Shown: piece by piece, positions 14,301 to 49,782 of the stretch
How positions within the stretch are numbered: the first letter of the stretch is position 1
Layout: the number at the start of each line of letters is the position of its first letter
Origin: Porphyra umbilicalis
Taxonomy: Eukaryota; Rhodophyta; Bangiophyceae; Bangiales; Bangiaceae
Length of the DNA stretch: 64,000 bases
Assembly (NCBI GenBank): GCA_002049455.2
Contig: KV918952.1
Location: forward strand, 62,001 to 126,000
Reading direction: 5' to 3'
The notes under the pieces: model-generated
The model's input: the letters and a program-made list of their open reading frames with translations, nothing else
What the model was told of the DNA's origin: nothing
The model's database searches: none
Position numbers and translations under genes: made by a program

Positions 14301-15247
14301 GCTGACAGCGAATGGCCGGCCCGCGAGAGCACGAGGCGGGAGGTCCGATGGGTCCTCTGCGTCACGGTTGGAACGGTATGGTGCGTCATCTTCCACCCGT
14401 TTGACAGGCTGTGGTAGCCTGCCTGGAACGTGTCTTCAACCGAAAAAAAGTCGGCCATGGATCCTCACCGGGGCCACATATGCAACGAGTCTGGCTCGAG
14501 TGGCGAGTGGATTGTTCCACAAAGAAAGCGGTGCTGGTGGCTGGCCCAGAAGCGTGACCGCTGCACAGGCCTTGGCGGGAGCGAGCCCCTGCTACCCGGG
14601 CTGTCAGGGTTGCCAGAGTGCAGTGACGGCAGCTTCACCTGGTTGCGTCTCCGCGGGTTGGTTCGGGCTGTGGAAGCTGCGGCCTCATCGTCATCACTGG
14701 TCTGCCACCGCCGTGTCTCCTATTTTGAGGGGAGCCTGGCGGGTGGAGCGCGGATCCCAACCTTCCACCCACTCGGCGGAGATATGTGGGTCAACGGCCC
14801 ATGAGCGCACCGGGCGGTATCAATGACTGGGAGATGGGGGCGTGGCGGTCTGAGCGGGTCTCTGAACGCGACCTTCATGGCGGCGAAATGACGGCTACGG
14901 GACAGTGGCGGGGCGGTCGGGGGGGTGGGCGGGCGCTCTGCCGCCCACCTGTGCGGTGGCGTCGCCCTCGCATCGGCCGCTGCGTACGAGCTTTCCGAGT
15001 GTCTGGTGATGGCTTGGGAGTTCTCTGGATGCCTTTATAGTCGCGGGGCATCGCCCCACTGCTTGGCCCCGACTTCCAAATCGACCCACGCCACTCACAA
15101 GCTGCCACCTCCATCGCCAACAGCACCTACGACCACTATATCCATCGCATAACCACCACCGTCTGCCGCACCCACCCTTCTCGGCGGGTACCCTGCCTCC
15201 CCTTCCCGAACACCCGAGGGCCCGGCTTTTGTCACCCACCCGCCACC
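11347..15247. other. long spacer, possible unrecognised exons
   Basis: No gene is supported over 3.9 kb. An open plus-strand frame at 12,545-13,072 and an overlapping minus-strand reading around 12,600-12,760 (containing GTIIGASTLAAVVG, which would suit a membrane helix) are mutually exclusive and cannot be decided. A 247-residue plus-strand frame from an ATG at 14083 has ordinary amino-acid composition but no motif. The last 70 bases are a C-rich leader ending in CGCCACCATGG. Confidence 0.35.
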
Positions 15248-20121: not shown

Positions 20122-20143
20122 CATCGTCGCGAAAATGTACCAC
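20122..20143 (+). repeat. 22-bp inverted repeat, left copy
   Basis: Starts CATCGTCGCGAAAATGTACC. The exact reverse complement lies at 29926-29947. A perfect 22-base match is not expected by chance in 10 kb. It is either a terminal repeat of the 20-30 kb element or part of two copies of a small repeat in opposite orientation. Confidence 0.6.
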
Positions 20144-20414
20144 TCTACTGGGGGTGTGCTGGGCGTGCTGCGCGTGCTGCGGGCGTGCTGCGGGCCGAAA
20201 TTCTTACTCCCGATCTGAAATTCTTGCTGGCCCAGACGGCCCTGTGCTGGCCACGAGGGAACGTGGGCTACAAGCGGAGCCCTCATCAATCTACGACGAC
20301 GCGGAGGGAAACTGCTTGATGTAGCCTCCCAAAAAGCAGGCTACAAGTCGGTCGGCTTGAAGAATAACTGTAGCACGTGGGACGATTCAATGCCTGCCAG
20401 CGACGGCTGCTCAC

Positions 20415-20735
20415 GGATCAACTCTGGCCGTTGATTACGGGAATGTAGTGGGGTTCGCTGTCCGGTACGTACGTGGCCGTGGCCCCCTGTGATCCTCAGT
20501 GATCCTCGAGTGCGTGGCCGGTCAGGTCTCGCGGCGACGCCGCGCGCTTGCCCCCGCCCCGCCACGCGCCCGTGCAGGATCAACTCTGGCCGTTGATCAC
20601 GGGAATGTAGTGGGGTTCGCTGTCCGGTACGTACGTGGCCGTGGCCCCCTGTGATCCTCAGTGATCCTCGAGTGCGTGGCCGGTCAGGTCTTGCAGCGAC
20701 GCCGCGCGCTTGCCCCCGCCCCGCCGATGCCCCCG
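20415..20735. repeat. 162-bp tandem duplication inside the transposase frame
   Basis: The 162-bp segment beginning GGATCAACTCTGGCCGTTGA at 20415 is repeated immediately at 20577, with only a few differences and a slight divergence at the end. The period equals 54 codons, so the minus-strand reading frame stays open through both copies. Confidence 0.85.
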
Positions 20736-23700
20736 CCCAAGCCCCTGCCCCACCGCGCCCGTGCCCCCACCATGCGAATGCCCCCGCCCCGCCCCGCCGC
20801 GCCAATGCCCCCGTCCTACTCCACAACTCGGGTGCTTCTGCCCCGCCGCGCGCCCATGCCCCACACTGCCAAGCAGAGCCCTGGTCCCGTTCCCATCGGT
20901 GCCCTGACACCACTGTGGAACACTGCGCAACGACCTTTTCTTCCTTTCCCCCCGCCCCCGCCCCGACCTTTCTTTCCCTGGCACGTCCCCCCCCCCCCCC
21001 CCCCCCCCCGGAACGGCACACTCTTCTCCTCCCGCCGAGATGACTTTCCCAGATACTGCACCGGCTTTACTCGGAGCCGTCCTCACTGTCAGATGCGCAC
21101 TCACCCAGGCCCTCTCGAACAACAAACGCATTAACAAAAAGCGAGACGCCCGTCGCTCCTCCGCCGTGTTGGGGACGTCGTCGGGCATCACCGTAACGCC
21201 GTGGCGCTCACTGAGGTCCTCCCAGTCATACTCGACGGCAATCCAGCTCACAATGTCCGCAGTCGTAAGCACGTCGAGGCGTACTGCGTCTCCCTCTGCC
21301 TCCATATCCCATTGTAGGCGCTCACACCCGTACTTGGTCAGCACGCATCCGGGTGTCGCCGTAGCCTTTTCCGCTCGCCGCACCACCAGCCGCTCCCAGC
21401 CGCGGGCCCGTGTCGTTACCACTAGGGTAGCCTGACCGACCCGAATGGCCCCATCTGGTCGGCGGTACCGCAGCCAGTCAAACCACGGTGACCCATGGAA
21501 AACCGGCGCGGCCCGGATAGTGTGTTGGGCGTGCCCTCGCCTCGGTTGAGAGGCGTCGCCATAATAGAGGCTTCCGCTCCTGCAGAGGAGCGTACTCTCG
21601 GGACGGCACAGCACAGCCGCCAAGCCAGGGATACTGTGGCTCCTGGCCAGCTCAGCCAGAGAGTACTTCTTGGCATACCGCCGCCGCCGTCGTCGCCGCT
21701 GCCGCCGCTGCGGACGGCTGCGCCGTGTCCCTGCCGAGTCATAGTCGCCGCCCGTGTCGGTCCCTGGTCCCTCCTCCTCCGCGTCGGCGTTGTCCTCCTC
21801 TCCGTCGTGGAGCAGGGTGTACACCTGCTCGCTCAGCACAAGTTGCTCGACGAACTGGTCCCTCCTCTTGTTGGTAAGCTTGTAAGCGGCCTTAACTGCC
21901 TTGTGTAGGGCCTCATTATACGCACTGTTGCCGTCACCGACGTTACCCCTGAGGCGAAACTCGTCCAGAAGATGCGCCGACATGCGGTGAAGCTTGGTAC
22001 TGTGGGCTGGCCCCAGTACGGGCTGAAAGACCTCAACCACCCACGCGTGGGCCTTCTTGGCCAGCACAACCGCCTCCGAGTACAGAATACCACCGCCCTG
22101 GTTGGTACACTGTGCGGCAAAGAGTGCGTTTGTCACGACAACCAGCTCGCAAATAGCCGCAGTCAAAGCGCTGTGGTGGTCGCCATTGCCCGGGGCGCCC
22201 GCTACGCCCACGACACCGAAAGGCAGGAATGGTAGGGCACGACGGTGCTCACTGCCCGTCATTGTGGCCTGCCTTGTAGCCTCTGGGACAAAGTACCTGT
22301 GACATAGGAGCCCATACTGCCAAAAGGGACTGATAGCACGGTAGCCTCTTGTCAGTACGCGGATACGGTGAAGGGATGTGAGCCACAGCCTGCCCCCAAG
22401 CAATAAACACACCCAGTAGGGCTCAAAACGTACCCAGGGTGGATGTACGGCACGCGCAAACGACGCGACGCGTGCTTGAACCGCATATTGATGCCACGCT
22501 CGGTGTTTGTCACGGTGTCAAACCGCGCATGGGCTCCACCTTCTGCCATTTTGCGGAGGTAAACAGGCACCTCGTTGGCGACCTTCCTGTTGATACCAGT
22601 GTCCATGACCTACTCTCGGGCACACAACACACAGCACCAATACCACAAGAGCTACTCGCGCCATGTCACGGGCCGTGCACAGTGAGATACTGAACGTATA
22701 CTGAACAGGACCGAGGCAGCATACCGATAGAGAGGCGCCCGACATGGGCGCTCGCCCGCCCACCAAATGCAAGGAGCGAGCAGTTCTACTCTCGACGAGC
22801 AAAGAGACGTACGTGAAGGCGATCGAAGCCTGGCAATCGATACAGCATGCGGGGACCATTTCCAAGGCCAGCCCACGCGGCCATCGCAGGGACCACGCTG
22901 TTGAGGCTGTGCTCCAACTCTACCTCTGCACGCCTCGCCGCCGCGCCCCAAAAGGTCCCCATCGTGGCGTTCTTGAGCTGCGCCCGTACCGTCTCCTGGA
23001 CGTCTCTGCTAGGAGCATCGGCCCCGGACGCCGAGCACGAGTCCTCCCGTCCCACCATGCAGGGCGTACAGGGAAAGAGACAGCCAGTACCCTTCAGGCA
23101 CATTACGGCACGCTCCTCAGGTTGATCACACACGTAAAGGAGGGCACGTGGGGAGACACGCACTCGACCACCGCCGGGTCAGTTCAGCCACGCCCCACGG
23201 TGGCTGGCCAGCACGCTGCCCCGAAAGACGAGGTGTAAAATCCGCTGGAGCAGCTCGGAACGCACCTCATGGCCTTTGCGCGTCTTTATGAACTTGGACT
23301 CGACCTGTGGGATGTACGCTAGTGTGACCCATCGTACGTCCTTGGTGTTGATGTTGACGACGCGCATACGCAAAGGGTAAGCCGATACTGCTCCGCTGCT
23401 GCTGAGCACAGTAGCATCAGAGTACAGGTGCATCGCCAGTACTCTCGTATCCTCGTGCATAGTGCCCTCGACGTGGGCTTGCTGCTCCCGGTACATCTCC
23501 CCGTCCCAGCTGCCTCGCAGTAGCACCGACTGTGGCCCTTCCACGCCATTGTCAGCTGGAGACGGCGGCGGTCCCCAGCACAGGTCCCCTAGCTCCACTT
23601 GCATGATCTCCTCCTGGGCAGCGTCGAACGCGTCGCGGAAGAAGACGGGGTACTTGCGACCGTCAACCGCCATAACAACCTTTTTCCAGTTGAGAGGGGC

Positions 23701-24750
23701 GACGAGAGAGCGCTTGAATCGTCGAACGGCGGCAATCAACCGGTTTGCAGTGTGGAAGGCTGCTGTAAATGGCGTGCGGGAGGCGGAACTTGCCGCCTCT
23801 ACCTCCTTGGTGTACCGGTACAACCGGCGCAGCTCCTGTTGCGACAGGCCGCATCCGCCGCCCGACGTGCAGGCAAACGTGAAAACGTGCCACAGGTCTT
23901 CGCTCAGCCACGGGGCGCGCCCTCCCCCGCTGCCTCCTCCGCCCTCCAGTGGTGGAAAAGCGGTGGTTGCACGCCTGGCGTCCCCAAAGCGCTCGTAGTG
24001 GTCGAAAACCTGCTCACATAAACCCCGATCGCCACCGGCCCCGGGGCTCTGAGCTTCCGTACCGCCGTCCTCGCCTCGTACTCCTCCCCCGCCGGCACCA
24101 CTCCCACGGCCATGCCCACGCGCAGCCGCATGTACCTCTCCAGTCGTATCCTCATTATCCCCGACAGATCCATCGGTCGGGTTGGCACCGGCGGTGTTGC
24201 CTCGACGGCGCGCACGCCTCCGGTGACGGTTCTGCGCGTCAGCACGGCGCGCTCGCCTGGTACTCTCAGACGGGGCGCCTCGCCGGGCGCGACCCCGTCG
24301 AGGCGACGGCTTTGGAGGAGAGGCAGGTGCTGTGATTGCCCGAGCGAGCTCCAGGAATACCTCAGACTCCAGTCCTACTACGTCCCGCACATCCCCAACA
24401 CCCCCAACACCCCCAACACCCCCAGCATCCCCAGCATCCCCAGCGTCCCCAGCACCCCCAGCATCAGACGTGCCAGCCGTCGCGGCAGTGGCAGCCGTCG
24501 CGGCAATACCCATTGCAACCGTAGGGCCACCAGACTCATCAGACTCAATGCAAATGGCAGAACCCACTGCAACCGCAGGACCTCCGGGCTCACCAGACTC
24601 CTCAGACGCATCAGACTCTATACAAATGGTGTTGATACCCTCACACCCCGTGGGCGTTGCCTCACGGTGCGCGTGTGCCGCATGCCGGTGCTGTCCGAGG
24701 CATCGACTAAAACAGCGGCCGCAGTCTGCTGCTCGGCACGGAAAACTCAT
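20658..24750 (-). pseudogene. Plavaka/CMC-type DDE transposase with one in-frame TGA
   Basis: The exons on the minus strand are 24750-22813, 22609-22434 and 22389-20658, with GTACGT donors. Joined they give 1,282 codons in one frame, with a single TGA at 23181-23179. Order: a C2H2-type zinc finger at the start (MSFPCRAADCGRCF..HRHAAHAH); Asp/Gly-rich spacer; 'LYSDATVLSSSGAVSAYPLR' with the first catalytic Asp; a CxxC pair (PCTPC) just past the TGA; 'FDRLHVMDTGI' with the second Asp, created exactly by the exon 2-3 junction; and 'NSAYNEALHKAVKAAYKLTNKR' with the Glu. This DDE layout and the closing TNKR motif match Plavaka-type transposases, relatives of CACTA/KDZ elements. Past about 21,060 the open frame becomes low-complexity and includes the 162-bp duplication, and an alternative frame there ends 'ASDSEDGSE'. 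The true C-terminus is therefore uncertain. The copy is dead unless the TGA is read through. Confidence 0.78.
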
Positions 24751-25616
24751 CGACGCAAGCCACCAGCACTCGTAAGCAGGACAGAGCGGGCCTGGAGCTG
24801 ACCCACGGTGGGAAGAGGTGCAGCGGTCGACCGGGTCGGGAAGAAGACGGGCAGGTGGCACGAATGCATCATTCAGATATGCTGACTGTAAAGTAACCCC
24901 AGCCAGTAACACCAGAAGTAACCCCACAAGGTTCACGATATGAAATCGTATCTGTCAGTCTGTCAGCACTGGCCCCTGATCAAGAGATTGTGGGGCATCG
25001 AATGGTCCTCTCGGTAATGGATGAGAGCCCCCCAGCCTCGTGCGGGCACCGAGCCATCATTTTTGCCTGCCTGAGGGCGCTGGGTGCTCAGGAGCCACCT
25101 GATCACAGCTGCACGGGGCCGCGTGATGGTAGCTCGATACTGATGGCGAGCACTGATTGGTGCTGCGAAGCACTCCCGGTTGGCGACAGGCAAGCTGCCC
25201 AGGTTGTGTCCGCCGTGTCCGGCTCGTGTCGGCTTTTTGGGGACAGGCGAGACGGCCCGGCAACACTGCTGGCAAGGGCCTTTCTCCAGGCCTTTCTCAC
25301 GGCCCTTCTCGTTGGCCCGTTTTTGGCCCACGCCACGGCCCAGCAACACCTCCGGCAAGGGCTTTCTTTAGCCCGGTAACACCTCTTCCACGGGCGTTCT
25401 GGGGGCCCTCCTGTCCCGCCCCACTACTGCTGGTGGGTGTCCTCAAAGCCCGCTGGTCAGTTCGTCTGTGATACCTCCTTGAGGCGGCCCGCACCGCGAC
25501 AAACGGGCTCCCAGCATCCTCACGGACCCTCTCCCTGACCCCCACACGGACCCCCCCCCCTCCGACCCCGCACAGACGCTCGAACCCCCCTTCTGCCCGC
25601 GCCCGCAGTTGGCAGA
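24751..25616. other. divergent promoter region of the 20-30 kb element
   Basis: This lies between the outward-pointing transposase and the second gene, and so probably drives both. The right half is C-rich with repeated CCTTTCTC/GGCCC words. A CGCCCGCAG just before 25617 could be a splice acceptor, so the second gene may have an upstream leader exon. Confidence 0.4.
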
Positions 25617-28600
25617 ATGGCGAATGCTTCCTCTTTGGGCCGCCTACTCGTGTGCATTGGCAACGTACTGGACAGAGAGGAGACCGGAGGCCGCGGGGAC
25701 CGTGGGGCAGCGGCTGCAGCCGCCGGCGATGGCCGGAATGGAACAGGGACCGAGGCGACGGCCGTCGACGCCTACCGAGTCGCGGACGGAGCACCGACGG
25801 CCGCCGCCGACAAGGGCCGGGAGTCGACAGCCTCCCTTCTGAGCGCCGCCGTCCTCGCCCTCCGCAATTCCGGAGCAGCAGCCGCCGCCCCGCCGCCTAC
25901 TGCCCCCGTCCCGCCGCCTACTGCCCTCGCCCCGCCGCCTACTGCCCTCGCCCCGCCGCCTACTGCCGCCGCCCCGCCGCCTACTGCCCCCGTCCCGCCG
26001 CCTACTGCCCTCGCCCCGCCGCCTACTGCCCTCGCCCCGCCGCCTACTGCCCTCGCCCCGCCGCCTACTGCCCTCGCCCCGCCGCCTACTGCCCCCGTCC
26101 CGCCGCCTACTGCCCTCGCCCCGCCGCCTACTGCCCCCGCCCCGCCGCCTGCTGCTCCCGCCCCGCCGCCTACTGCCGCCGCCCTGCCGCGTGTTGCCAC
26201 TCCCTCGACGCGTGCTGCCACTCCCTCGACGCGAGCTGTCACTCCGACGCGTGCTGCCACTCCCCCGCCGCGTGCTGCCACTCCCCCGCCGCCTGCTCCC
26301 CCGCCGCGTGCTGCCACTTCTCCCCCGCAAGACGAGCGAAACTTGTCCCACTCGGTCGCGTCACACTCGGCGAGTATGGCTGGCGGCCAGGCTGGTTCCC
26401 GCGCTGGGAGCGCACCTGCCGCGTCGGCCCGCCTCGCTTCTGCCGCGGGAGGATGCTCGGGCGGATCGGCGGTGAGGAGGGCCAACAAGGACACCAGTCT
26501 CCCGGCTGAACAACTGTACGTTCTCTCTGCATGTATACTGCGTGCCTTGCCTCAATTTTTGCTTTTCCTGTCGCTTCTTGCATGGAGGTCAGAGCTGTCG
26601 TGCTCCGCGTGCGTCGATTCTGGCGCACTGGAGCGATGTCGTGTGCCGGTGGGCGTCCTGTGCCGACAGCTGACCCGAGTACTTTCTATTACTGCCCCTT
26701 ACTGCCCCTTACTGCCCCTTACTGCCCCTTACTGCCCCTATACTGCCCCGTGCTGCCCCTTTACTGCCCCGTGCTGCCCCCTTACTGCCCCGTGCTGCCC
26801 CATTTCTTCCCCTGTTCTCAGCCAGACCAAACTGTCAACCTTTTGGCCCGGCCGAAAGTGGCCAGCCCAGCAGGATGGCGAGACCTCGGCTGCTGCTGGC
26901 ACTCCGACCAAGTCATCCACGCCCAAGGCGTCTAGTTCACGCAAGCGCCTGCGCGACCGCGTGGTTTCGGCAGCGGTGGAAGACGCTGCCAACGCACTGA
27001 CGTGGCGTGTCGACGGCGTCGCGGTACCGGTTGAGCCCCCTTCCTGGTGCACCAGTACGTCAAACGCCCTGCTGTCGGCGCATATTGCCGCGCACAACAG
27101 CTTCGTCTCGGCACGTGCTGCCCAAGAGATGGCCATCCAGACAGCTCAAGCATACGCCAAGACATTTGCCCCCGCGGCCAAGCGTCGTCGCGGAGTCAGC
27201 CCCTCAGCGGATGCCGACGGCGCTGATACTACCGGCTCTGGTTTGGATGGGGAGCCACCGGCCACTGTCACCCCGCTATCACCGAGCAAGCTGTCACCCC
27301 GGGCGCGGCCAGCGGCAAAGGCCACTGCGGGTGGCACGGCAAGCGAGGACGTGATGCCGAGGGGCACGAGGGGCAAGCCACTGATCCAGGCGCTGCGCAG
27401 CTGCCTCACTAAGCGCATGCACAATGGCATCCTGGCGCCGTCCACCAACGACGACGTGTACCACTCCCGCGAGACCCTCAGGCCGTTTCTGGCGGCCGTC
27501 GTGATGGAGGTGGCCAAAGTCGACAAGAAGGACGCTGAAAAGCTCCTGCTGACCAACTTCTCCGTCCCCGCGGTCAATAACTCGAAGCTCCCTAGCTCCA
27601 AGATGCTCAAGCCGTGGCTAGGTAAGACGCGCAACAACGTACACTTTAACCTCAAGGACTGTATCTTTCGGGCGTGGACGGCGGGCAGCGGCTACGGCGG
27701 TACATCCAAGGCGGAGACAAGGCGGTTCTTACATGGCCGGGGGTACCTCAGGGGTGCCAAAGGGCGTCGGGGAGTCCTCAATGCCTTCCTGGCTGTGGTT
27801 TCCCACTGTGGTGGGGACCCGGACAAGTACACCTTTCCTGACGGGGATGACGGAGACGCACTGGCCTCGACGGTGCTCGCCACGCTGGCCTTTGTGCTGA
27901 GCAAGGTACGTTATTGGCGCCATGGACGGGGAGTGTACTGTGGCTGGGGTGTTGCAAAAGCGCTGTAGGGGGTTCCATTGAGGTACTGGCCGATACTGAC
28001 CGGCACTTGAAGCCACGGAGTTTCTTGAGTGTGTCGTCTCTGTGGCTCGTGTGTCTGTGACCCATGAAGATTCGTATGTGCCTGGAGGGAGAGTACCTCT
28101 CTGCGGACGGCAGGAAGGTGAACGAGTGCGTGCTACACGGCGGAAAGATGAAAGCGGGGCGCGCCGCTTGGGCGAAAGAGTTGACTTACCTGCATGTGGA
28201 GGTTGATGAGTCAGGAGACTACTGGGCCAAGCTCTTCAAGACGAACCAGGACGAGGACGACCGGGCAACCATTCCCAACTCCCCCGAAGAAGGTGAGCCC
28301 CCTGCTGTCCACTTGGGCGTCAACGTGAATGCCCGCGCCGACGACGAGGACGTTACTGAGAGCGAGCACGCAAGTCTGAGACAGATGGTGCGCAACTGGG
28401 TGGCGGCGCGGAAGGAGGTCGTGGACCTCGACGGGGATGGGGATGACGAGGACGGAGACGGTGGTGGGGCGAGCAGCGGCGGCGGCCACGCGCCGGCCCA
28501 TGGTGGTGCGGGCGATGATGATGGCGGTGGCGCAGGCAGTGGTTGTGCCCCCGCCGATGCGCCGCCGGGCGGTGGGGCAGGCGGTGGCGGTGGCGGCGGG

Positions 28601-29071
28601 GCGGGCGCCCCCGTAGATGCGCCGCCGCGCGGTGGGGCAGGCGGTGGCGGTGGCGGCGGGGCGGGCGCCCCCGTCGATGCGCCGCCGCGCGGTGGGGCAG
28701 GCGGTGGCGGTGGCGGCGGGGCGGGCGCCCCCGTTGATGCGCCGCCGCGCGGTGGGGCAGGCGGTGGCGGTGGCGGCGGAACGGGCGCCCCCGTCGATGC
28801 GCCGCCGCGCGGTGGGGCAGGCGGTGGCGGTGGCGGCGGAGGCGGGGATGACGGAGGTGGATGGGGGCGCGAGCTGGCAGGCCTTAGCTTGCCGCCACTG
28901 CCCTCGGTGCCGCGTCGGCTGGGTGCTGGGGTGGGGCGAGTGCCCAACTGGCAACGCCACCCCTTTGACCGCTCCGACTCTGAGGAGGAGGTGCGAAGGC
29001 CCAAGAAGAAGGTCTGGGAGCGGCGCCAGCTCGCGCGCACGGCGGGCCCGGCGGACAGTGACGATCAGTAA
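25617..29071 (+). CDS. 994-aa protein of unknown function paired with the transposase
   Basis: The exons are 25617-26515, 26822-27905 and 28070-29071. Both introns have GTACGT donors and AG acceptors, and the join keeps one frame from ATG to TAA. Order: a short N-terminal helix; a Pro-rich tract of 7-residue repeats (PPPTALA type, residues about 90-185); a basic nuclear-signal-like stretch (SSRKRLRDR) and AKRRRG; and a well-folded-looking core around residues 460-700 with aromatic and charged residues ('LIQALRSCLTKRMHNG', 'MLKPWLGKTRNNVHFNLKD'). Then come 'MCLEGEYLSADGRKVNECVL', an acidic and Gly-rich repeat tail, and 'SDSEEEVRRPKKK'. I do not recognise the fold. Its position suggests an accessory protein, for example a DNA-binding or regulatory partner such as TnpA in CACTA elements. 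It may also be a captured host gene. Confidence 0.6.
25890..26170. repeat. 21-bp coding minisatellite
   Basis: About 13 head-to-tail copies of a unit like CCGCCGCCTACTGCCCTCGC vary at one or two positions. They encode the 7-residue repeats PPPTALA, PPPTAPV and PPPTAAA in the second gene of the 20-30 kb element. Confidence 0.9.
26691..26811. repeat. ACTGCCCCTT microsatellite in an intron
   Basis: Five 10-bp units ACTGCCCCTT are followed by longer variants with CGTGCTGCCC. They lie within the in-phase intron 26516-26821. The TACTGCCC word recurs downstream of the same gene at about 29,360-29,420, where it alternates with C runs. Confidence 0.8.
28555..28845. repeat. 60-bp coding minisatellite, about five copies
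   Basis: Five nearly identical 60-bp units each encode about 20 residues (DAPPRGGAGGGGGGGAGAPV type) in the third exon of the accessory gene. Differences between units are single bases, so the array is young or homogenised. Confidence 0.92.
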
Positions 29072-29221
29072 TCGGATCCCGAGTTTTTCCGTAGCGCTCT
29101 GGGGACTGAGAGCAACACCTCATAGCGCGTTTGATGGTGTGTCTGCTACTCGCGTTGCTTGTGCTCTTGTCATTGCGTTGTTCCCGGTCTTGTTTCTGGC
29201 CTTTTTCATTGCTTGCTGTGC

Positions 29222-29330
29222 TTGCGGGGGTTGGGGGTGGGGGGTGGGGGCGCGGGGGCGGGGGGGGAGCGGGGGAGCGGGGGGAGCGGGGGGAGCGGGG
29301 GGAGCGAGGGGAAAGGGGGTGGGGCGAGCG
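29222..29330 (+). repeat. G-run tract downstream of the accessory gene
   Basis: Many runs of 3-8 G are separated by single bases or AGC, then AGCGGGGGG-type units repeat about five times. The strand could form G-quadruplexes. It lies about 150 bp past the TAA. Confidence 0.75.
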
Positions 29331-29983
29331 GGGGTGCGGGGAGAGAGGGTGCACTGCCCGTACTGCCCCCCCCCCCCCTCCCACGTACTGCCCGGTACTG
29401 CCCGTACTGCCCCCCCCCCCCACATGAAGCGTGAGAGCGCCCTGTAAAATGCCTGTCTGTGTGCAACGTTCTGCGACGGTGAGCGATAACGTGGCGCAAC
29501 AGGGGCCATTTACGACGGCGCTTCCGCGTGCGCTGCGTATCCGGATTACGACCTGCTGCGTAGCGACTGGGCGCGCGGCCACGAATCGCCGCAAGAGGGT
29601 GTCACGTAACTCCTCGGTAAATCCCATAGGACGTCCTGCAGGGTGCCTCTGGGGGCCTCCGGGTGCCTCTGGGTGCCTCCAGAATGCCTACTGGGGTGTG
29701 CGCAAGGTGCGCGCATGGCTCCCAGACACGACTTTGAGCAGTGTCAGATCGTACTGGGGATCTAAAATGCGAATATGGGACCTTACCCATTTGGAAGAAC
29801 ACTGTGGAGAACAGGGGTCCAGTACGCGACAAATCTCGGCAAATATCGTACTGGGGGCCCATTTGGGACCGTTTCAGATCAACCTGCAATACTGCTGGCC
29901 AACTCCCCAGGCACGTTCTCAGTACGTGGTACATTTTCGCGACGATGCACGTAGGATAATCGGATACTGAGACGAATTCCTGT

Positions 29984-34636: not shown

Positions 34637-35083
34637 GTGTACTATGGGTTTACATCCTCCCATGTACGGTGCACGGTGGTTCTCCATCATGTCGGGATTC
34701 GTATCTCCTCGACGGTGGGGTCACGTGAAAGGTACTGGCATTCCTACATTCAGATGCTCCCAGTGCCAAAATGTCAAGCTTCATCCTGCCCTTAGGAGGT
34801 GCTGAGAGCGCCTGTTTCATCTGGTATATTGTTTTGCCGGATAAACATGTAGCCCCCTCCCTCCTTTTCTCCCGCAATCAGAAGCCGAAACGAGGTGCGT
34901 GCATGGTATGGGGGCCTCTACTGGGGACTTTTTCTCCATCGAAGTCTTGTCGAGGATTCGCTGCGCCATCGTCTGCTTGGGACTTTTCTCAACGGAAGGT
35001 TGGACAACTGGATGATCCCGTGTATGGATCTCAGGAACACTGTCCCTTCAGTATGCAATCCAATTGTATTTGCTACACCAGTA

Positions 35084-35120
35084 TTGCAGTCTGCTGAATT
35101 TTGCCTGTCCAGGACGGAAC
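35084..35120 (+). repeat. left terminal inverted repeat of the mariner-type element
   Basis: Starts TTGCAGTCTGCTGAATTTTG directly after TA. It pairs with 39601-39637 with three mismatches in 37 positions. Confidence 0.88.
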
Positions 35121-35342
35121 AGAAACACAAGCAGGAATTTGATTTTTAAAGATAAGTTCTTACCTTCCATTATTGACCAATTTTTATTTGAGTGCAATGA
35201 CAAGTGAATCGGTCGTCGTCGGTGATGGGATCCAGCGTCACCGGTACCGTCGTCCGACGTCGGCTGCTCCGACACGCCGGCACGTCCCATCGACGTCTGC
35301 TCCCCTCCAGGCTTCCATACACGCCGAGCGCAACCGATTACC

Positions 35343-36701
35343 ATGTCTTCCAGTGGCGCTGGCGTGAGGTCAGCCGGTGCTGCCGCGGGTACAGGTACGC
35401 GCCTACGTCTGATACCATGATTGCGTCAATCGCGCCGGTCAAGAGGATTCTTGATTACGTGGAGCTGTGCAGGAGCGGGTAGCGTGGGCCCACAGTTGGA
35501 GCAGACCTCTATTTTGAGCAGGGACTAACTCTGTCCGATTCACACCATCGTGGTTTACAATCTTTGGTTGGCTGGTTGCCATCGACACCTGATGCCCTCT
35601 GCAGTAGTCGGTGCGGGTGCCCAGCGGTGTGGTCTGTGCCGTCTCCCCGGGCACAGATCTCCCCGCTGTCCAATCGGACTCGAGGACAACATCAAACACA
35701 CCTGCAAGAAGCCGTCATGTGGCCCGTGCTCGGCCACGTGTGTCGTATGCGACGAGGTCGGGCATCAGCCAGACAACGTTGACGTCAAGATCATTCGAGG
35801 CAGGGCGCCGCGTTGGTCGTGCCCCTCGTTCAACATGTCGGAGATGCAGACTCGTTTGCAGCCGAAGCTCCGCCACCTTCCTCCCACTGAGCGCAGCAAA
35901 AAGGAGGCGGCTAAGGGGCACAAGCGCACGCTCGCCGAGATCGTCCCGGAGGACAGCGAAAGATTTGAGGCACACGTGGCGCGATCGAATTCCGTCGACC
36001 TCACCGGGCTGGGTGGAGCGGCGGCATTCCCGGCCGTGCGAATGGCGGGGGGCGTAGCGGCAGCCTTGGAGGACGAGGGGGCTCCCCGTGCAGCGGCGCG
36101 CTCGATGGGAGCTTTTGTGTCCGATTTTACCACACAACCGGCAGGTGGCACATGTCAGCCAATCCCGGGGCCTGTTGGGACGGCAGTGGAAGCGGGTCGG
36201 GCCAGAGAGACGGTGATTGACGCTTTGAAGAAGGCCCTTACGGAGGTGCCGAAGTACTCTGCCGGCACGCGGTCGGGTGCCAGGCGGCGGAACCAGGAGG
36301 CCGGTTTGAGCGGCGGCCGCTCCAGTGGTTCTGAGGAGGTGCTGGGCAGCGCCAACCCATTTTTCAACGCCAAGGGGCGAGACCTGAAGCGTGCGCTGCA
36401 GCGGTACGTTGCTCTTCCGGACGGGCCGGAGCTCTCTTTGGTTAAGGCTGCCATGACCAAGTTCGTTGGACCGGGGATGGTGTACACAGGTGCATCCGTG
36501 ACTTGTGGGGAGCTTAGGTGCGCGCGGGTGCACGCGGCGCTGATGGAGTGTGCGGAGGTTTTCGACTTGACTTTACCCGCGGTGTGTGCTTCGATGCGTC
36601 AATTCATCGTCGAGCTCCGACGTGGGGATGATGACCTGCAGCGCTTTTTTAATGACCCGACCGTCACGTCACCAGCGCAGCGCTCGACGGCCTCTGAATA
36701 G
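35343..36701 (+). CDS. zinc-knuckle protein carried by the mariner-type element
   Basis: Exons 35343-35394 and 35608-36701 join in frame to 381 residues (MSSSGAGVRSAGAAAG...), with donor GTACGC and acceptor GTAG. The second exon opens with a zinc knuckle CGLCRLPGHRSPRC (C-x2-C-x4-H-x4-C). A second Cys/His cluster follows (C..C..C..C..C..C..GHQ, residues about 43-66), then a linker with basic patches. A helical C-terminal part (residues about 280-375) reads 'DLKRALQRYVALPDGPELSLVKAAM' and continues to 'MRQFIVELRRGDDDLQRFF'. Zinc knuckles usually bind single-stranded nucleic acid. No nuclease, integrase or reverse transcriptase is present. Being inside the terminal repeats, it is either an accessory transposition protein or host cargo. 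The frame is intact. Confidence 0.66.
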
Positions 36702-37297
36702 GGTAATAGAACATGACTTGTCTTTCGCGCAACCGCAAACACCACTCCCCTTCGCTTCAAACGACAGCCCCACCATCACATCATCCTTGTCGCGCTTTCT
36801 TCGCCGAGGGCTCCTGCGAAGAGTCACAAAAGTCTCACTACCAGCCCTTAATCTCTCAGGACGACGTCGAGTGACCGCTCCCATTGCTGTGGGTAGCTAC
36901 GGGGCCTCTGAGCCGGCGGCGGCAGTGGCGACGGTTGGCGGCGGCGGAAAATCAGCGATCCCGGCCGCAGGGCCCCCCGTTGGCCGGCGGCGCAGACCCG
37001 GCGAACTCCAGGCGGCGCGGAGGCGGGGCCTTGTCGTCCCAGGAGAGCACGACAGGGACGCCCCTGACACGCGGTCCCTTCGTGATTACCTCGCGCGACA
37101 GTGCGGCAGCTCTGGCGCGCGCGACGCCGACACCAAGAAAGAACAACCATCGCCATCAAGAGAGCGACAACAATACTGGGCGTCAACGGACAAGCCAATA
37201 CGTTAACAGAAATCTTACACAGCAGCAGCAGAAGCATGTGACTGCGAGGCTGGTAAAATGTAGGCAGTCGATGTTACCCTCCATGGTGTCCTTCCTC

Positions 37298-37430
37298 CAG
37301 TGAGGGTCATGCAAGCGCGAGACGTGCTCAGAATCGTTTTCCGAGAGCGGGAGCGAGCTCATCGACCCTGAGGTACCAAATGTAGTATAGAAGGAGCTCC
37401 CAGTTCGGTATGTTTCGTGCTGCCGCATGC
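37298..37430. repeat. duplicated segment, copy 1
   Basis: Begins CAGTGAGGGTCATGCAAGCG and matches 37632-37765 at roughly 80%. On the minus strand both copies read LPLSEN(D/H)SEHVSR followed by DPHW. The replacements between copies are mostly conservative (K/R, L/F), as if the segment had been coding when duplicated. Confidence 0.75.
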
Positions 37431-37631
37431 CCCCTAACATGTTGGTCGTGGTCACGGAGGGGGGGCGGAAAGCGCCTCGGCCCGTATCTCTGGCTGTGGT
37501 GGTCCATTTGTGACGCCTGTGAGTGCAAAATGCTGCGCTGGATACGTCTATGCTCGAACCGCAGTGGTCCGCACCCGGCCGCTGCTCAGAAGAAAGATAG
37601 TCAATGGGCCCCCCCGTTTGTGTCTCTTTTC

Positions 37632-37765
37632 CAGTGAGGGTCATAAAAGCGCGAGACGTGCTCAGAATGGTTTTCTGACAGCGGGAGCGTGCTCTGAGAC
37701 CCTGAGTTACCCGTTGCAGTAATGAGGGAGCTCCCAGCTCGGTGGTTTTCGTCCTGCCGCTCGCT
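37632..37765. repeat. duplicated segment, copy 2
   Basis: Begins CAGTGAGGGTCATAAAAGCG, 334 bp after copy 1, in the same orientation. Confidence 0.75.
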
Positions 37766-37941
37766 CCCCGTCATCTTGGTGTTGGTGTGAGAGCAAGTTT
37801 TGACACGTCTTCGGGTGGTTAAGTTGTCTGTGGGTTGTGTTTATGGACCGGTGTTGTGTCAGAGGTGTCGGACGCTGTCTTCGTTTAGGGCGCCTGTGGC
37901 GTAGCAGGTGACGTGTTTGGAGATGGAGAACTTGTTACAGT

Positions 37942-39131
37942 TTACGGCACATAGAGGTTGTATCGCCTCACAGCAGCGCGAGCAAACCCGCGGCACAAGT
38001 TCCCGGTGATGTGCAGTAGCATGCTATCTACGGTTGTCATTGGCCACGCGTGAAACTGATCTGGTGAGCACCAGCGCCGGATCCAACTGCTCCCCGCAGA
38101 AAAAACATTCTCTGTGGGATTGAAGTCAGGGGAGTAAGGGGGCAACAACAAAACAAACACACCCGCAGCCCTCACTCTTTGCAGGGCCACCTCGTCGTGG
38201 ATACGGGGGTTGTCCAGCACCAGGACACAGCGTGGTGGCTGTTCGGCCCAACCCCCCTTCACACACGCCGTCATGCCGGGCAGCACAAGCGTGGTCAAAA
38301 AATGAGGAAATCAACAGACGTCTGCCCCGGAGGTGGGCGAGTGATGAACCAGTCGAGCACGCGGTCGTGAGCCATAGCAACAAAAAAACTGGTTTTGGCC
38401 CCTGCGGACGACGCCACGTACAGCTCAGACCGCGTGCCACGCACCGACCATGCCCAGCGCCGCTCTGCCGCACGGCCCACCCGATGAGCTTCGTCCACGT
38501 AGACGCGGCATCTCAGAGGGATCTTCCACTGGGAAGCCACCCACGCGACCCGCTGGGCCTCGTTCCGCGTAAAAAACGCCTTCTCGATAATCTTGAGCGT
38601 GTACCCGTTCCGGGCCAAAATTCTCCCAACTGACGCCGGCGGCACTTGCACGGCGCCGTCCACGGCCACCGTCAGGGCGTTTACCGCCTCCGCCAGCTCG
38701 TCCATGAAGAGCTCTGGCTGCTTGCGTACCGCGGAGAGGACGGCATCCCGCAGCGTCGGGTTGTCCTTCACATTGTCCGCATGCCGGTTCCATTGCTCGG
38801 GGTCGTGGTGAAATTCGCCACCAGACTCCATGAAGTAGCGCAGGAAGCGCCACGCCGACCACTCGGAGAGACGCAAGCAATGCGCGGCGTCCGTGACGTT
38901 CTTTCCGTCCAGGCACACCATGCGCACAAGGTGCTGCCGCGTCTCGGCGGAGAATATGCCGAGAGCGGGGTAGCATGAAAAGGCAGGGGGTGGAATAGGG
39001 GGCAGGGAGGGAAAAAGTAGAGGTGTGGTCGGGAAAGTGCAAAGAGGGTGGACTCGCGCTTGAGGCACCAGACACGAAGAAAGACGCCAGCCAGCAAATC
39101 CGGGAGGTGGCAACAGGGACACGGTGAGCAA
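37942..39131 (-). pseudogene. Tc1/mariner (IS630-type) DDE transposase, one frameshift
   Basis: N-terminal helix-turn-helix ('ETRQHLVRMVCLDGKNVTDAAHCL', then 'SEWSAWRFLRYF'), then the DDE_3 catalytic domain. The first Asp lies in CRVYVDEAHR, the second in CVLVLDNPRIH, and the Glu in LLPPYSPDFNPTENVF. Thirty-three residues lie between the second Asp and the Glu, the expected spacing for the superfamily. Between the first Asp and the second, the frame shifts by one base at a six-T run on the coding strand (38297-38302). The frame is otherwise open. No good ATG precedes the helix-turn-helix, so a short upstream exon is likely. All three catalytic residues survive, so the element died recently or the T count is a sequencing error. 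Confidence 0.84.
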
Positions 39132-39600
39132 AAGAGTGCAAGTTGCGAAGCGGTGACAGCGCAGACTGGCGCGGTGACGTCAAAGGCAGCGGCTTCCCCC
39201 CGTCAGGCCCAGCTCACCGTCACTTCCAGGCAGCCCGTCCAGTTCCTGGGTCCCTTGACCTCTCAGCAAACGGTCAATTTTCTCCAGTCTTGCTCGATCC
39301 CGGATGCTTGTGCCACCATCGCCCGCAGAAGCCGCCAACAGAGCAGAAAACGACTGCATGGGGGATAAGGAGTCCGACCCTTCATTCCTTCTTATCGACT
39401 TGTTGAGCGGAATGAAGGCCCAGGAGAGGACAGCTGGTGCCCCGGTTTCACGTCGAGTGGCTAGAAAGACTCAAAAAAGACATATTCAACATCAAATAGC
39501 GCATGGAACTGGCTCTGAGTACTGGCCTCGTCTGTTTCCGCCAGACCTTCTCAAACACTTGCTCATCTTTCATGACAGCCACAATTGTCCCGAGAACTGC

Positions 39601-39637
39601 GTTTCGTTCTGGACAGGCAAAATTGAGCAGACTGCAA
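39601..39637 (-). repeat. right terminal inverted repeat of the mariner-type element
   Basis: Reverse complement of 35084-35120 with three mismatches, followed by TA at 39638-39639. Confidence 0.88.
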
Positions 39638-40015
39638 TATTCTCAGCAGACATCCGATCCGCCGTCGTCGAGACAATCTTCCTGACGAGGACGAACGCCA
39701 CGGTGGCCACCTGCCCATGCCTTGGAGCGATATTTTTTGAATACCCTGGGCAGGCGTCAGTTGGATTTCCGAGCGTTTTGGACGCATTTATGTACTTGCC
39801 ACGTGTGAACCACATGTGACAGAATTGGACTGATTGACTGCATTGATGCGATACCTGTGAATTTCCGAGCCAATCGCATCTGAAAGTGGGAAAGGGCTAT
39901 AGACTGCTCGCAGGCGGCGCCGCTGCCCCGACGGGCGGTGGTGGCCAACGACTGCAGCCGTGGCAGTGTCACCACTTCCCTGCTACTCCAGCGCCACCAT
40001 CCCGCATCGCGCTGG

Positions 40016-47271: not shown

Positions 47272-49782
47272 TGTGCTGAAAACGGCGGCCAGGAGGCCGA
47301 TGACCCAGCCTCGTCGTCGTCCGCGCCCACCACGACTTTTTCGGAGGGGATAGTGGGTTCGTACGTGCCTTCTGGGGCTTTGAGCTGCCCTCCCACTGTC
47401 ATCCATGGCGGGAAAACGTGGCACGCCATCAAGGTCGGCGAGAAAAGTTCGACATCCCAAGGTCACGTGTCGGGCTTTTTTGACACTTTCACGGGGGACG
47501 GAGGCGCTCAGGGGGGCGACTTTGTGGTGCGCTGCCGCGTTTGTGCGATCGATGGCCACACCGCCACGTACGTCCTTCGCGGCGGCAGGTCAAGCAACGC
47601 ATGGCATCACTTCGAGAACTACGCGGCGTTCGCACACGTCGGTGACCTGCAGCGGCGCCGGCATGCCGCGGTTGTGGCGTACCGCGCCTTCAAGACTCAT
47701 CCGCGCAAGCCAGCGGCAGGTGTGACGGCGGGACCGATTGACGGCTTCCTACGGACTGCACGTTCCCGGTTAATGACGCCAGCTCAAGCTCGGCCCCACC
47801 ACTCACGTTTTGTACTGCTGATGGTGATGTCGCTTTCGCCGTTTGCGCTGGCGGGCAATCAATACTTGCTGGAATCTGTGCGGGGTCTCGGCGTTCCGTA
47901 CGATCCGCCGGCGGCGTCCACCGTCCGAGATGTGCTGCTCGATCTTCTCGTCTTCCTGACTGATCAACTGCGGGCGCAGATTAAGCGCCTTCAGGGGCGG
48001 TATCGTGGTCTTCCATTCTTCCAGCTTGTCACGGACCTCTGGACAGAGCGGCATGGCTCTGGCTCCTACGGCTCCCTTGTGCTACGCTGTGTGGACCCGG
48101 ACGGTGTATCCATCGTCGAACTTCATCTTGGTGTGGTGCCATTTGCAGGGCGCCACGACCGCATCAACATTCAAGCCTGGACGAGCCGCCTTCTTCGTCG
48201 CTTTGGTGTGCGTAGCAGCGACATCTCCTCGTCAACTTCGGACTCGGGTTCGAACGTCAAGAAGGCTTTATCGGACCTCTGGCCGTGTTGGGTGCCCTGT
48301 GCAGCACACACCTTGCACCTTGCGGTTAAGACGGCGCTTGGGGCGACGGGCGAGACGGCGACCGCAAGGTTCGAGCATCGCAACGAGCCTTCTCGATCAT
48401 CAGCGACGCGACAAAGCAGCGGGAATCCAGCGGCCGCCGACCTCCTTGGGCGTGTGCGCAAGATTTCAAACCACTTCCACAAGTCATCGGCTAGCTTCGG
48501 GATGCTGAACTCTGTTCCGTTCCCCGGTGATGCGGAGCCACGGAAGCTGATCACCGAGTCACCAGGTCGTTGGTGCTCAACGTATTTGGCACTCGTCCGA
48601 CTTTTCACCCTCATGCCCCGAATGATCGGGTTCGGAGACCTCCGTGACCTAACGGTAGCCCAGAGGCGTCAACGGCTTGGACGCGAGGATTGGGGACAGC
48701 TGCGCCACTTGATCGACGTCCTCCAATCTGCGTACGAGGCCTGCATCGCGTTACAGAGCTCTTCATCAACTGTTGCGGACGCATTCAAGCTTGTGTGCAG
48801 CCTCCGGCGGACGATGCGGCTTCCCGCGTTTCCGTGCCCAAAGGCGTTTGAAAAGCCCCACGCTGTCGGCAGGGGCGACATCCTGAAGTTCCTTGAGGAA
48901 TATGAGCGCAGATCTGATGTGATGGAGCTTGACAATCGCTTGTACAAGCACCAGGCGGTGCCTGTCAAGGCATTGCGCACCGTCGACGGTCTTCGCAGCG
49001 GGGCGGCAACCTTCATTTCCGTCGTCCAACGCGAGTTGGACCGTCGCTTTTTCAACTCGGCGCATCCGAGCAAGAACTGGCTCGCCAACGACGCTGTGTT
49101 GGCTGCCACGCTGGTCACACCTGGCGGGGCCGCGATGCTGCGTAAGGGAGCTGCGCGCGATGGGCAAGATGCCCCTATCGACCGCGCTCACGCAGCTGTT
49201 GTGGCCACGGCAGAGAGCCTCATTGACGCGAGCGCCTCCGCGCCCGCACGACAACTGGAGCTGGAACAAGAGCGTAAGAGATGCCGCACTACGCTTAACG
49301 ACTGGGACTCATACGAGAGCCGCGGCGCGTCCGAGAGCGCGCCAGCCGAGCTTGTCAAGCGAGAGCTCGACAGCTTCCTGGCTACGTACTCTGCCTCGGT
49401 CAACACCGGGGTGCTCACGTTCTGGTCGGCCCGCGGGGACGAGTACCCATTGTTGATGCTGGTGGCCTGCGCGTTGCTTGGGGCATCTGGGTCGTCTGCC
49501 GCATCCGAGCGGGAGTTCTCGACGGCCGGGATGGTACTGCGCAAGGACCGCTCCACGCTGCTCGCAACACATGTAGAGATGCATTGCTTTGTGCGTTTTA
49601 ACGCCCACCTCGTTCCCTCTGACTTGTCGGCTATCCCTGTGTTGACGCAGGCGGCCCGGCCAGGTGCACGCGCGAGTATGCGCGCCATTTCTGTTGATAT
49701 GCCTGTGGATGGGGGGTTGTCGGGAGATTCGACGTCGAGCGGCAGCGATATGTTTTTGGAGAGCACCGATGAGGTGGAGTGA
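47272..49782 (+). CDS. hAT-family transposase
   Basis: The frame is open from 47272 to the TGA at 49780, more than 830 codons, with no internal stop. It starts inside a Ser/Thr-rich segment without an ATG. The first in-frame ATG (about 47,773) lies past the zinc finger, so the true start is probably in an upstream exon. Order: BED-type zinc finger ('CRVC' followed by 'SSNAWHHFENYAAFAH'); RNase H-like core with 'LVTDLWTE' (first Asp, near 48,030) and 'TSDSGSNVKKAL' followed by 'CAAHTLHL' (second Asp and the CxxH); the RW motif 'GRWCSTYLAL'; and an alpha-helical insertion. The C-terminal hAT dimerisation domain is 'FWSARGDEYPLLMLVACALL', 'SSAASEREFSTAGMVL', 'LLATHVEMHCFVRFN'. This is the best-preserved transposase in the window and could be active. 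Confidence 0.86.
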   Translation, partial: CAENGGQEADDPASSSSAPTTTFSEGIVGSYVPSGALSCPPTVIHGGKTWHAIKVGEKSSTSQGHVSGFFDTFTGDGGAQGGDFVVRCRVCAIDGHTATYVLRGGRSSNAWHHFENYAAFAHVGDLQRRRHAAVVAYRAFKTHPRKPAAGVTAGPIDGFLRTARSRLMTPAQARPHHSRFVLLMVMSLSPFALAGNQYLLESVRGLGVPYDPPAASTVRDVLLDLLVFLTDQLRAQIKRLQGRYRGLPFFQLVTDLWTERHGSGSYGSLVLRCVDPDGVSIVELHLGVVPFAGRHDRINIQAWTSRLLRRFGVRSSDISSSTSDSGSNVKKALSDLWPCWVPCAAHTLHLAVKTALGATGETATARFEHRNEPSRSSATRQSSGNPAAADLLGRVRKISNHFHKSSASFGMLNSVPFPGDAEPRKLITESPGRWCSTYLALVRLFTLMPRMIGFGDLRDLTVAQRRQRLGREDWGQLRHLIDVLQSAYEACIALQSSSSTVADAFKLVCSLRRTMRLPAFPCPKAFEKPHAVGRGDILKFLEEYERRSDVMELDNRLYKHQAVPVKALRTVDGLRSGAATFISVVQRELDRRFFNSAHPSKNWLANDAVLAATLVTPGGAAMLRKGAARDGQDAPIDRAHAAVVATAESLIDASASAPARQLELEQERKRCRTTLNDWDSYESRGASESAPAELVKRELDSFLATYSASVNTGVLTFWSARGDEYPLLMLVACALLGASGSSAASEREFSTAGMVLRKDRSTLLATHVEMHCFVRFNAHLVPSDLSAIPVLTQAARPGARASMRAISVDMPVDGGLSGDSTSSGSDMFLESTDEVE

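What the first reader, a model, noticed from the sequence alone, without database searches (positions are those of the whole stretch)
35084..39637. Large Tc1/mariner-type element carrying a zinc-knuckle gene
Near-identical 37-bp inverted termini, TA on both sides and an IS630-type DDE transposase define a mariner-superfamily element. At 4.55 kb it is two to three times the usual size and includes an intact, spliced, 381-residue zinc-knuckle gene on the other strand. Tc1/mariner elements normally encode only the transposase. The second protein could be a nucleic-acid-binding transposition partner, or cargo. The intron in the extra gene and the intact frame suggest it is or was expressed.
Basis: partly seen in the sequence, partly recalled or inferred. 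Interest (0 to 1): 0.78.

Follow-up and report, generated by a model that had tools for sequence, protein, structure and literature searches.

The report
Two-gene Tc1/mariner transposon with zinc-knuckle
This is one copy of a large family of jumping genes of the mariner type that, unlike almost all of their relatives, carry a second gene for a zinc-binding protein next to the gene for their own cutting enzyme, and have kept the two genes together long enough that the protein probably helps the element to move.

Summary
Confirmed. Window 35084-39637 is a TA-flanked element with 37-nt inverted ends. It holds a zinc-knuckle gene (+; short exon, 210-nt intron, 382 aa) and an IS630/Tc1-type transposase (-). 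Related repeats show the empty site with one TA. This copy's transposase is broken by a frame break; the zinc-knuckle frame is open.

The second gene is no accident of this copy. In the 83.8-Mb assembly, 75 of 90 related transposase loci have a zinc-knuckle gene within 20 kb, 69 convergently. Of 54 more distant transposases 2 do, none convergently; of 48 loci of an unrelated hAT transposase, 5. In 11 of 12 elements examined the ends enclose both genes, down to about 31% zinc-knuckle identity. The two proteins diverge in step (Mantel r 0.93), with dN/dS about 0.2 between subfamilies. Named holders of the zinc-knuckle protein are Pyropia yezoensis only.

So this is a two-gene Tc1/mariner clade (DD33E). 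In that superfamily I found accessory genes described only in ciliates. A role of the protein in transposition is inferred, not shown. New variant of a known kind.

The parts
35084..39637 (.). whole element between the TA target duplications (TA at 35082-35083 and 39638-39639)
   Evidence: inverted ends; empty sites in related repeats
35084..35120 (+). left terminal inverted repeat
   Evidence: same TATTGC...AATTTTG core in other subfamilies
39601..39637 (-). right terminal inverted repeat
35343..35394 (+). zinc-knuckle gene, exon 1 (17 codons + 1 nt)
   Evidence: spliced translation; 17-18 codon first exon before a GT, by eye, in five of six subfamilies
35395..35604 (+). intron, 210 nt, GT...AG, phase 1 (predicted; no transcript seen)
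35605..36701 (+). zinc-knuckle gene, exon 2 with stop; CCHC knuckle, second Cys/His module, helical C-terminal part
   Evidence: open frame; 109 matching stretches in the genome; conserved Cys/His; model
37277..37786 (.). two direct repeats of 176 nt (78% alike, start-to-start 334 nt) in the spacer between the convergent genes
37942..38945 (-). IS630/Tc1-type DDE transposase, in two frames (N part 38298-38945, C part 37942-38310): broken in this copy
   Evidence: the C106 copy reads through the same region in one frame (400 aa stop to stop), though its N-terminal end does not line up with relatives

Best explanation
The element is a member of a two-gene clade of IS630-Tc1-mariner DNA transposons. 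Shown by sequence: TA-flanked inverted ends enclose a convergent pair, a zinc-knuckle gene with a short predicted first exon and a DDE (DD33E) transposase, with a spacer between them that holds repeats in the two elements looked at closely; the pair has been inherited together across deep subfamilies. Inferred: the element moves by ordinary cut-and-paste at TA by the transposase, and the basic, 40-kDa zinc-knuckle protein is an accessory nucleic-acid-binding factor of transposition (end or subterminal binding, complex assembly or nuclear delivery). The second proteins of PIF/Harbinger and ISL2EU are described as DNA-binding, but their function was called unknown in the paper I saw (PMC4482050). 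This copy no longer makes a whole transposase, so it could only be moved in trans.
For: Linkage: 75 of 90 transposase loci at 42% identity or more have a zinc-knuckle gene within 20 kb, 69 convergent (hits); about 4 of 90 expected at random. Of transposases under 38% identity 2 of 54, none convergent. hAT control 5 of 48. Both genes within the ends: 10 of 12 elements by alignment, C49 by terminal motif. Identities of paired genes to the window query correlate (Spearman 0.87 over convergent pairs). Co-divergence: Mantel r 0.93, 0 of 10,000 permutations, 11 elements; trees share 5 of 7 splits. Constraint: dN/dS 0.17-0.31 (zinc-knuckle) and 0.08-0.19 (transposase) in the printed between-subfamily pairs. 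Exon 1/intron pattern. Both frames open in 14 pairs (by eye). IS630 relationship. Zinc residues kept.
Against: No biochemical, expression or binding evidence. Within subfamilies dN/dS is 0.28-1.01 (zinc-knuckle) and 0.34-1.00 (transposase), so single copies drift; dS between subfamilies is 1.0-1.5 in the pairs printed (larger ones were not), near saturation. 15 of 90 related transposases show no zinc-knuckle gene within 20 kb and 6 of 90 show one in another orientation. From the other side, 27 of 96 zinc-knuckle loci had no related transposase within 20 kb, for instance C93, which has a left end but no transposase match in the 10 kb fetched. The C9 element has an extra copy of the left terminal motif between its two genes. 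No family in Pfam, NCBIfam or the PDB sequences matches the protein, and no fold comparison could be run. In E. coli, ChIP-seq of the TBE accessory proteins and transposase showed no difference from input in any combination (PMC12242761, section 20).
Confidence: 0.62

Rival explanations
1. The zinc-knuckle protein is element-encoded and selected for, but acts on host control (anti-silencing, RNA binding or export, repression of copy number) rather than in the transposition reaction.
For: Equally consistent with linkage, co-divergence and constraint. Zinc knuckles often bind RNA (recalled). Tc1/mariner elements generally lack accessory proteins (PMC12242761 section 20), so their chemistry seems not to need one.
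Against: Nothing here speaks specifically for it, and nothing excludes it.
Confidence: 0.28
2. Passenger: a host gene was captured once by an ancestral element and has been amplified without function for the element.
For: Copies within a subfamily evolve with dN/dS up to about 1; many copies carry stops.
Against: Identity down to about 30% with conserved residues, a repeated exon pattern and dN/dS about 0.2 between subfamilies. A single-copy host homologue was not specifically sought.
Confidence: 0.07
3. Chance or artefact: two unrelated elements lie side by side, or the termini are spurious.
For: Nested insertions occur in this family, and C9 has a terminal motif between its two genes.
Against: Repeated convergent pairing inside TATTGC ends, empty sites, control 0 for the terminal motif, hAT control.
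Confidence: 0.01

Closest known systems
TBE elements of Oxytricha (Tc1/mariner; PMC4724952 passages, PMC12242761 passages and section 20)
   Same: Tc1/mariner transposase plus accessory genes, one with a predicted zinc finger; accessory ORFs under purifying selection; short tandem repeats between two ORFs; multi-gene organisation kept across families
   Different: three ORFs (42, 22, 57 kD), the 57-kD one with a predicted kinase domain; telomere-like TIRs and ANT target; ciliate germline. Here two genes, TA target, TATTGC termini, no kinase match.
Tec (Euplotes), Sardine/Thon, Anchois (Paramecium) (PMC3464196, PMC7325037, passages)
   Same: Tc1/mariner elements with more than one ORF (Anchois 3.6 kb, Sardine about 6.7 kb)
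   Different: Tec, Sardine and Thon carry a recombinase gene and long TIRs; Anchois carries two hypothetical ORFs; the passages I read mention no zinc knuckle
PIF/Harbinger and ISL2EU (PMC4482050, passages)
   Same: what it may work like: DDE transposase plus a second protein described as DNA-binding in one element
   Different: Myb/SANT or YqaJ partner, another transposase family
Typical Tc1/mariner (DD34E Tc1, DD34D mariner)
   Same: TA target, TIRs, DDE_3 catalytic domain; only weak helix-turn-helix matches upstream of it
   Different: one gene; 34 residues between the last two catalytic residues. Here 33, and a second gene

Membership tests
IS630-Tc1-mariner superfamily | TA target duplication | tested here: met
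   11 places elsewhere are continuous across the junction; two of these, fetched and aligned, have one TA where the element has TA at both ends
IS630-Tc1-mariner superfamily | terminal inverted repeats | tested here: met
   39 nt, 92%; same core in other subfamilies
IS630-Tc1-mariner superfamily | DDE_3/IS630-like catalytic domain with D, D, E/D | tested here: met
   C106 copy: DDE_3 60.1 bits, cut-off 28.6; NCBIfam IS630 86.5 bits, under its cut-off of 100; triad in the alignment; window C part DDE_3 42.5 bits
Tc1 family, DD34E | 34 residues between the second D and E | tested here: not met
   33 in 15 of 15 rows other than the fungal one, 3 of these with one catalytic residue replaced; 34 in the fungal relative P0127
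Typical Tc1/mariner | single transposase gene | tested here: not met
   second gene within 20 kb at 75 of 90 related loci, inside the ends in 11 of 12 elements
TBE | three ORFs incl. 57-kD zinc-finger/kinase protein | tested here: not met
   two genes found; no kinase family among the Pfam matches of 22 members
TBE | telomere-like TIR and ANT target | tested here: not met
   TATTGC ends and TA target; TBE values from PMC4724952
Tec / Sardine | tyrosine recombinase gene | tested here: inconclusive
   five frames of the window element, incl. the 211-aa one of the spacer, gave no recombinase match; other frames, and the spacer of the C29 element, were listed but not searched
PIF/Harbinger | Myb/SANT partner protein | tested here: not met
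   no Myb/SANT family among the Pfam matches of 22 members
CCHC zinc-knuckle proteins | C-x2-C-x4-H-x4-C | tested here: met
   residues 9, 12, 17, 22 kept in 14/14, 13/14, 17/18, 24/25 of the rows that have a residue there; Pfam zf-CCHC itself not reached

The most novel reading that the evidence does not exclude
A deep eukaryotic lineage of Tc1/mariner has become an obligate two-protein transposition system: a DD33E transposase that needs a zinc-knuckle partner to assemble on or find its ends. It would be the first outside ciliates that I know of, and the zinc-protein partner would have been acquired independently of TBE.
Probability: 0.42. Interest if true: 0.77.

Novelty: new variant of a known kind. 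Interest (0 to 1): 0.6.

Why it matters
Tc1/mariner transposases are the standard case of self-sufficient transposition (recalled; see also PMC12242761 section 20). A clade with a lasting second gene lets one ask directly what a partner adds, and whether accessory proteins arose more than once in this superfamily (TBE in ciliates, this clade in what appears to be a Bangiales red alga). The family has dozens of copies, some with both frames open, plus miniature elements with the same ends as natural substrates, so a test is practical. It also says that at least four protein clusters named 'hypothetical protein' in Pyropia yezoensis belong to such elements or their relatives.

Tried and rejected
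A single-copy gene was rejected: 109 matching stretches, 69 of 96 merged loci near a related transposase. A relation of the second protein to a known family was sought in Pfam, NCBIfam and PDB sequences, without result. Relatives in IMG/VR viral contigs and in prokaryote genomes: none confirmed, by a search seeded with short patterns. The 10-kb and 15-kb inserts in the C106 and C161/C123 copies were considered as parts of a larger element and rejected: they are an LTR element with 392-bp LTRs and an element with other 22-nt termini.

Rows dropped: of 14 elements first put together, C93 (no transposase match) and C123 (left end not in the DNA fetched, transposase damaged) were left out of the 12. 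C353 and C446 have the same flanks and may be one insertion seen twice; both are in the 12 and in the Mantel test. C161 was not in the Mantel test (transposase piece too short); C161 and C353 were left out of the trees. One transposase locus at 38% identity (C116, zinc-knuckle gene 253 nt away, convergent) falls between the two classes and was counted in neither. The classes are identity classes to one query, not a tree; one search did not list all its matches. Of the hits of the second zinc-knuckle query, ten stretches picked by eye as new were added; those of the third added none.

Paper searches: (all ten allowed). None returned a paper on a two-gene Tc1/mariner of red algae; the library holds open-licence PMC papers only.
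Full report
WHAT IS IN THE WINDOW. Arms 35082-35120 and 39601-39639 are inverted repeats of 39 nt, 92% complementary, beginning TATTGCAG on both sides. Between them lie a plus-strand open frame of 390 codons (35529-36701), two minus-strand frames with transposase similarity (38295-39179 and 37942-38310), and a spacer with two 176-nt direct repeats. Pfam finds DDE_3 in the C-terminal transposase frame (42.5 bits, cut-off 28.6) and nothing in the plus-strand frame. The two transposase frames overlap out of register, so the transposase of this copy is broken. The plus-strand gene can be read as a 52-nt exon, a 210-nt GT-AG intron and the long frame: 382 aa, about 40 kDa, computed pI 9.1. It has a CCHC knuckle and a second set of cysteines and a histidine. 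In a 39-sequence alignment these are kept in nearly all of the rows that have the region (14 to 31 rows, by position).

IT IS AN INSERTION AT TA. The left flank belongs to a repeat. A query made of the two flanks joined at one TA has 14 matches: the window's own two flanks, one place on one side only (C20), and 11 places that run across the junction without a break. Two of the 11, fetched and aligned, read CCAGTAATCTC where the window has CCAG-TA-element-TA-TTCTC.

THE FAMILY. The window is G000:C192:62001-126000 of an 83.8-Mb assembly. The zinc-knuckle frame has 109 matching stretches and the transposase N part 151, not all listed. Merged, the listed ones are 96 zinc-knuckle and 145 transposase loci; ten stretches from a second zinc-knuckle query raised the former to 105. 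Of 90 transposase loci at 42% identity or more, 75 have a zinc-knuckle locus within 20 kb: 69 convergent, 3 same strand, 3 divergent; 15 have none. Of 54 loci under 38% identity, 2 have one (same strand), 52 none. One locus at 38% lies between the classes. From the other side, 69 of 96 zinc-knuckle loci had a related transposase within 20 kb and 27 had not. Uniform placement of 96 loci would give about 4 of 90. The hAT transposase of the same window, as a control, has a zinc-knuckle locus within 20 kb at 5 of 48 loci, the window's own among them. The distance between the paired genes is 1.6 kb at the median over 64 convergent pairs within 12 kb.

BOTH GENES LIE INSIDE THE ENDS. Twelve elements were examined with both flanks, out of 14 put together. 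In ten, alignment of the two ends gives an inverted repeat outside both genes that starts with TATTGC or has it within 4 nt of its start: C192 (the window), C106, C161, C9, C64, C353, C446, C5, C342, C29. C353 and C446 share their flanks. C9 has a further copy of the left motif between its genes. C49 has the ends by the terminal motif, although the alignment picked another inverted repeat. C46 gave no end. Of 26 pairs of facing terminal motifs, 4 enclose both genes, 1 part of the transposase alone (C240, 1455 bp), and 21 neither; 15 of the 21 are 163 bp long, and the six of these printed begin and end with TA. Upstream of the zinc-knuckle gene, 15 of the 20 fetched loci have TATTGC 532-643 nt before the CCHC region, by eye.

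A DISTANT SUBFAMILY HAS THE SAME PLAN. The C29 element (L061/L062) is 11.4 kb, with 51-nt ends (94%), an open transposase frame of 379 aa, an open zinc-knuckle frame of 392 aa (30-32% identical to the window's), and between them a 3.28-kb inverted repeat (98.5%) containing repeats 484 nt apart. By eye pairs (C353 and C446 both counted) have both frames open, at least 370 aa from stop to stop, with no stop in the matched part.

AGE AND CONSTRAINT. Zinc-knuckle and transposase distances correlate over 11 elements (Mantel r 0.93; 0 of 10,000 permutations). FastTree trees of ten elements share 5 of 7 splits. NG86 dN/dS between subfamilies, in the pairs with dS under 1.5 that were printed, is 0.17-0.31 for the zinc-knuckle exon and 0.08-0.19 for the transposase part, at dS 1.0-1.5; within subfamilies it is 0.28-1.01 and 0.34-1.00. 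The first gives long-term constraint on both proteins, with the caution that dS is near saturation; the second shows that individual copies decay. Read by eye, the first exon is 17 or 18 codons plus 1 nt before a GT in five of six subfamilies, which makes a real intron likely. Some copies have lost the start codon, the C161 and C123 copies have GC in place of GT, and the sixth subfamily (C5/C46/C353) has no clear donor at that place.

TRANSPOSASE TYPE. The frame of the C106 copy gives DDE_3 at 60.1 bits and NCBIfam IS630 at 86.5 bits, under that model's cut-off of 100. The profile meets Sleeping Beauty and Mos1 in the PDB only weakly (E 0.005 and 0.007). Between the second D and the E there are 33 residues in 15 of 15 rows other than the fungal one (three of the 15 with one catalytic residue replaced) and 34 in the fungal relative. 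A text search for DD33E found 3 papers; the one on transposons mentions it for a pogo variant in bees (PMC8472432, passages).

DISTRIBUTION. The only organism named for the zinc-knuckle protein is Pyropia yezoensis (I4F81_002709, I4F81_009761). The transposase has two P. yezoensis names, two EukProt entries and a distant Tilletia protein. Other hits are unnamed, mostly metagenome proteins; in each of these searches only about 8,000 candidates were scored. No relatives in viral contigs or prokaryote genomes were confirmed. The host is therefore probably a Bangiales red alga (lineage); the species is not established, and the inference rests on transposon proteins.

HOW IT PROBABLY WORKS. Shown: insertion at TA, conserved ends, both genes between them, shared inheritance, constraint. 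Inferred: cut-and-paste by the transposase; an accessory role of the zinc-knuckle protein. The nearest precedent is TBE, whose 57-kD zinc-finger/kinase and 22-kD proteins are under purifying selection (PMC4724952, passages). The authors of PMC12242761 (section 20, read whole) call such proteins surprising for Tc1/mariner, and saw no effect of them on DNA binding profiles in E. coli. So the presence of a second gene is well supported here, while its job is open: a transposition partner is my first choice, host control the main rival.

NOVELTY. Tc1/mariner elements with accessory genes are known in ciliates (PMC3464196, PMC4724952, PMC7325037, passages). This clade differs in gene content, termini, target and catalytic spacing, and appears to be from red algae: a new variant of a known kind. 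That it is undescribed rests on ten searches of an open-licence library and is not proof.

Noticed in passing
window 20122-29947: 9.8-kb element with perfect 22-nt inverted termini (CATCGTCGCGAAAATGTACCAC) and a frame (23182-24954, -) with a sub-threshold Plavaka transposase match (24 bits, cut-off 26.3); the same kind, 15 kb with a nested LTR element, is inserted in the C161 copy of the two-gene element and, without that nested element, in C123.
   Followed up: partly
window 47272-49782 (+): Uninterrupted 836-aa frame with a hAT dimerisation domain; 55 matching stretches in the genome.
   Followed up: partly
L021/L022 (C106 copy): A 10.26-kb LTR element with 392-bp LTRs 99.5% identical sits inside this copy with an apparent 5-bp duplication, so probably a recent insertion.
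   Followed up: partly
L061 2395 to L062 135 (C29 element): A 3.28-kb inverted repeat (98.5%) with repeats 484 nt apart lies between the two convergent genes; several related pairs are also 4.7-11 kb apart, but their spacers were not read. Why such an element keeps a giant palindrome is unexplained.
   Followed up: partly
L032-L037 and 9 further places: 163-bp miniature elements with the same termini, 15 counted by the terminal motif.
   Followed up: partly
L053 with L066 (C9 element): A further copy of the left terminal motif lies between the zinc-knuckle gene and the transposase, so a nested or composite structure is possible there.
   Followed up: no
L058 and L059 (C353, C446): Two contigs carry the same element with the same flanks: probably one locus assembled twice (haplotypes) or a segmental duplication.
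   Followed up: no
window 15041-16159 (+) and 2171-3721 (+): A PEPCK (ATP) exon and a protein with three CHRD stretches: ordinary genes beside the transposons.
   Followed up: no
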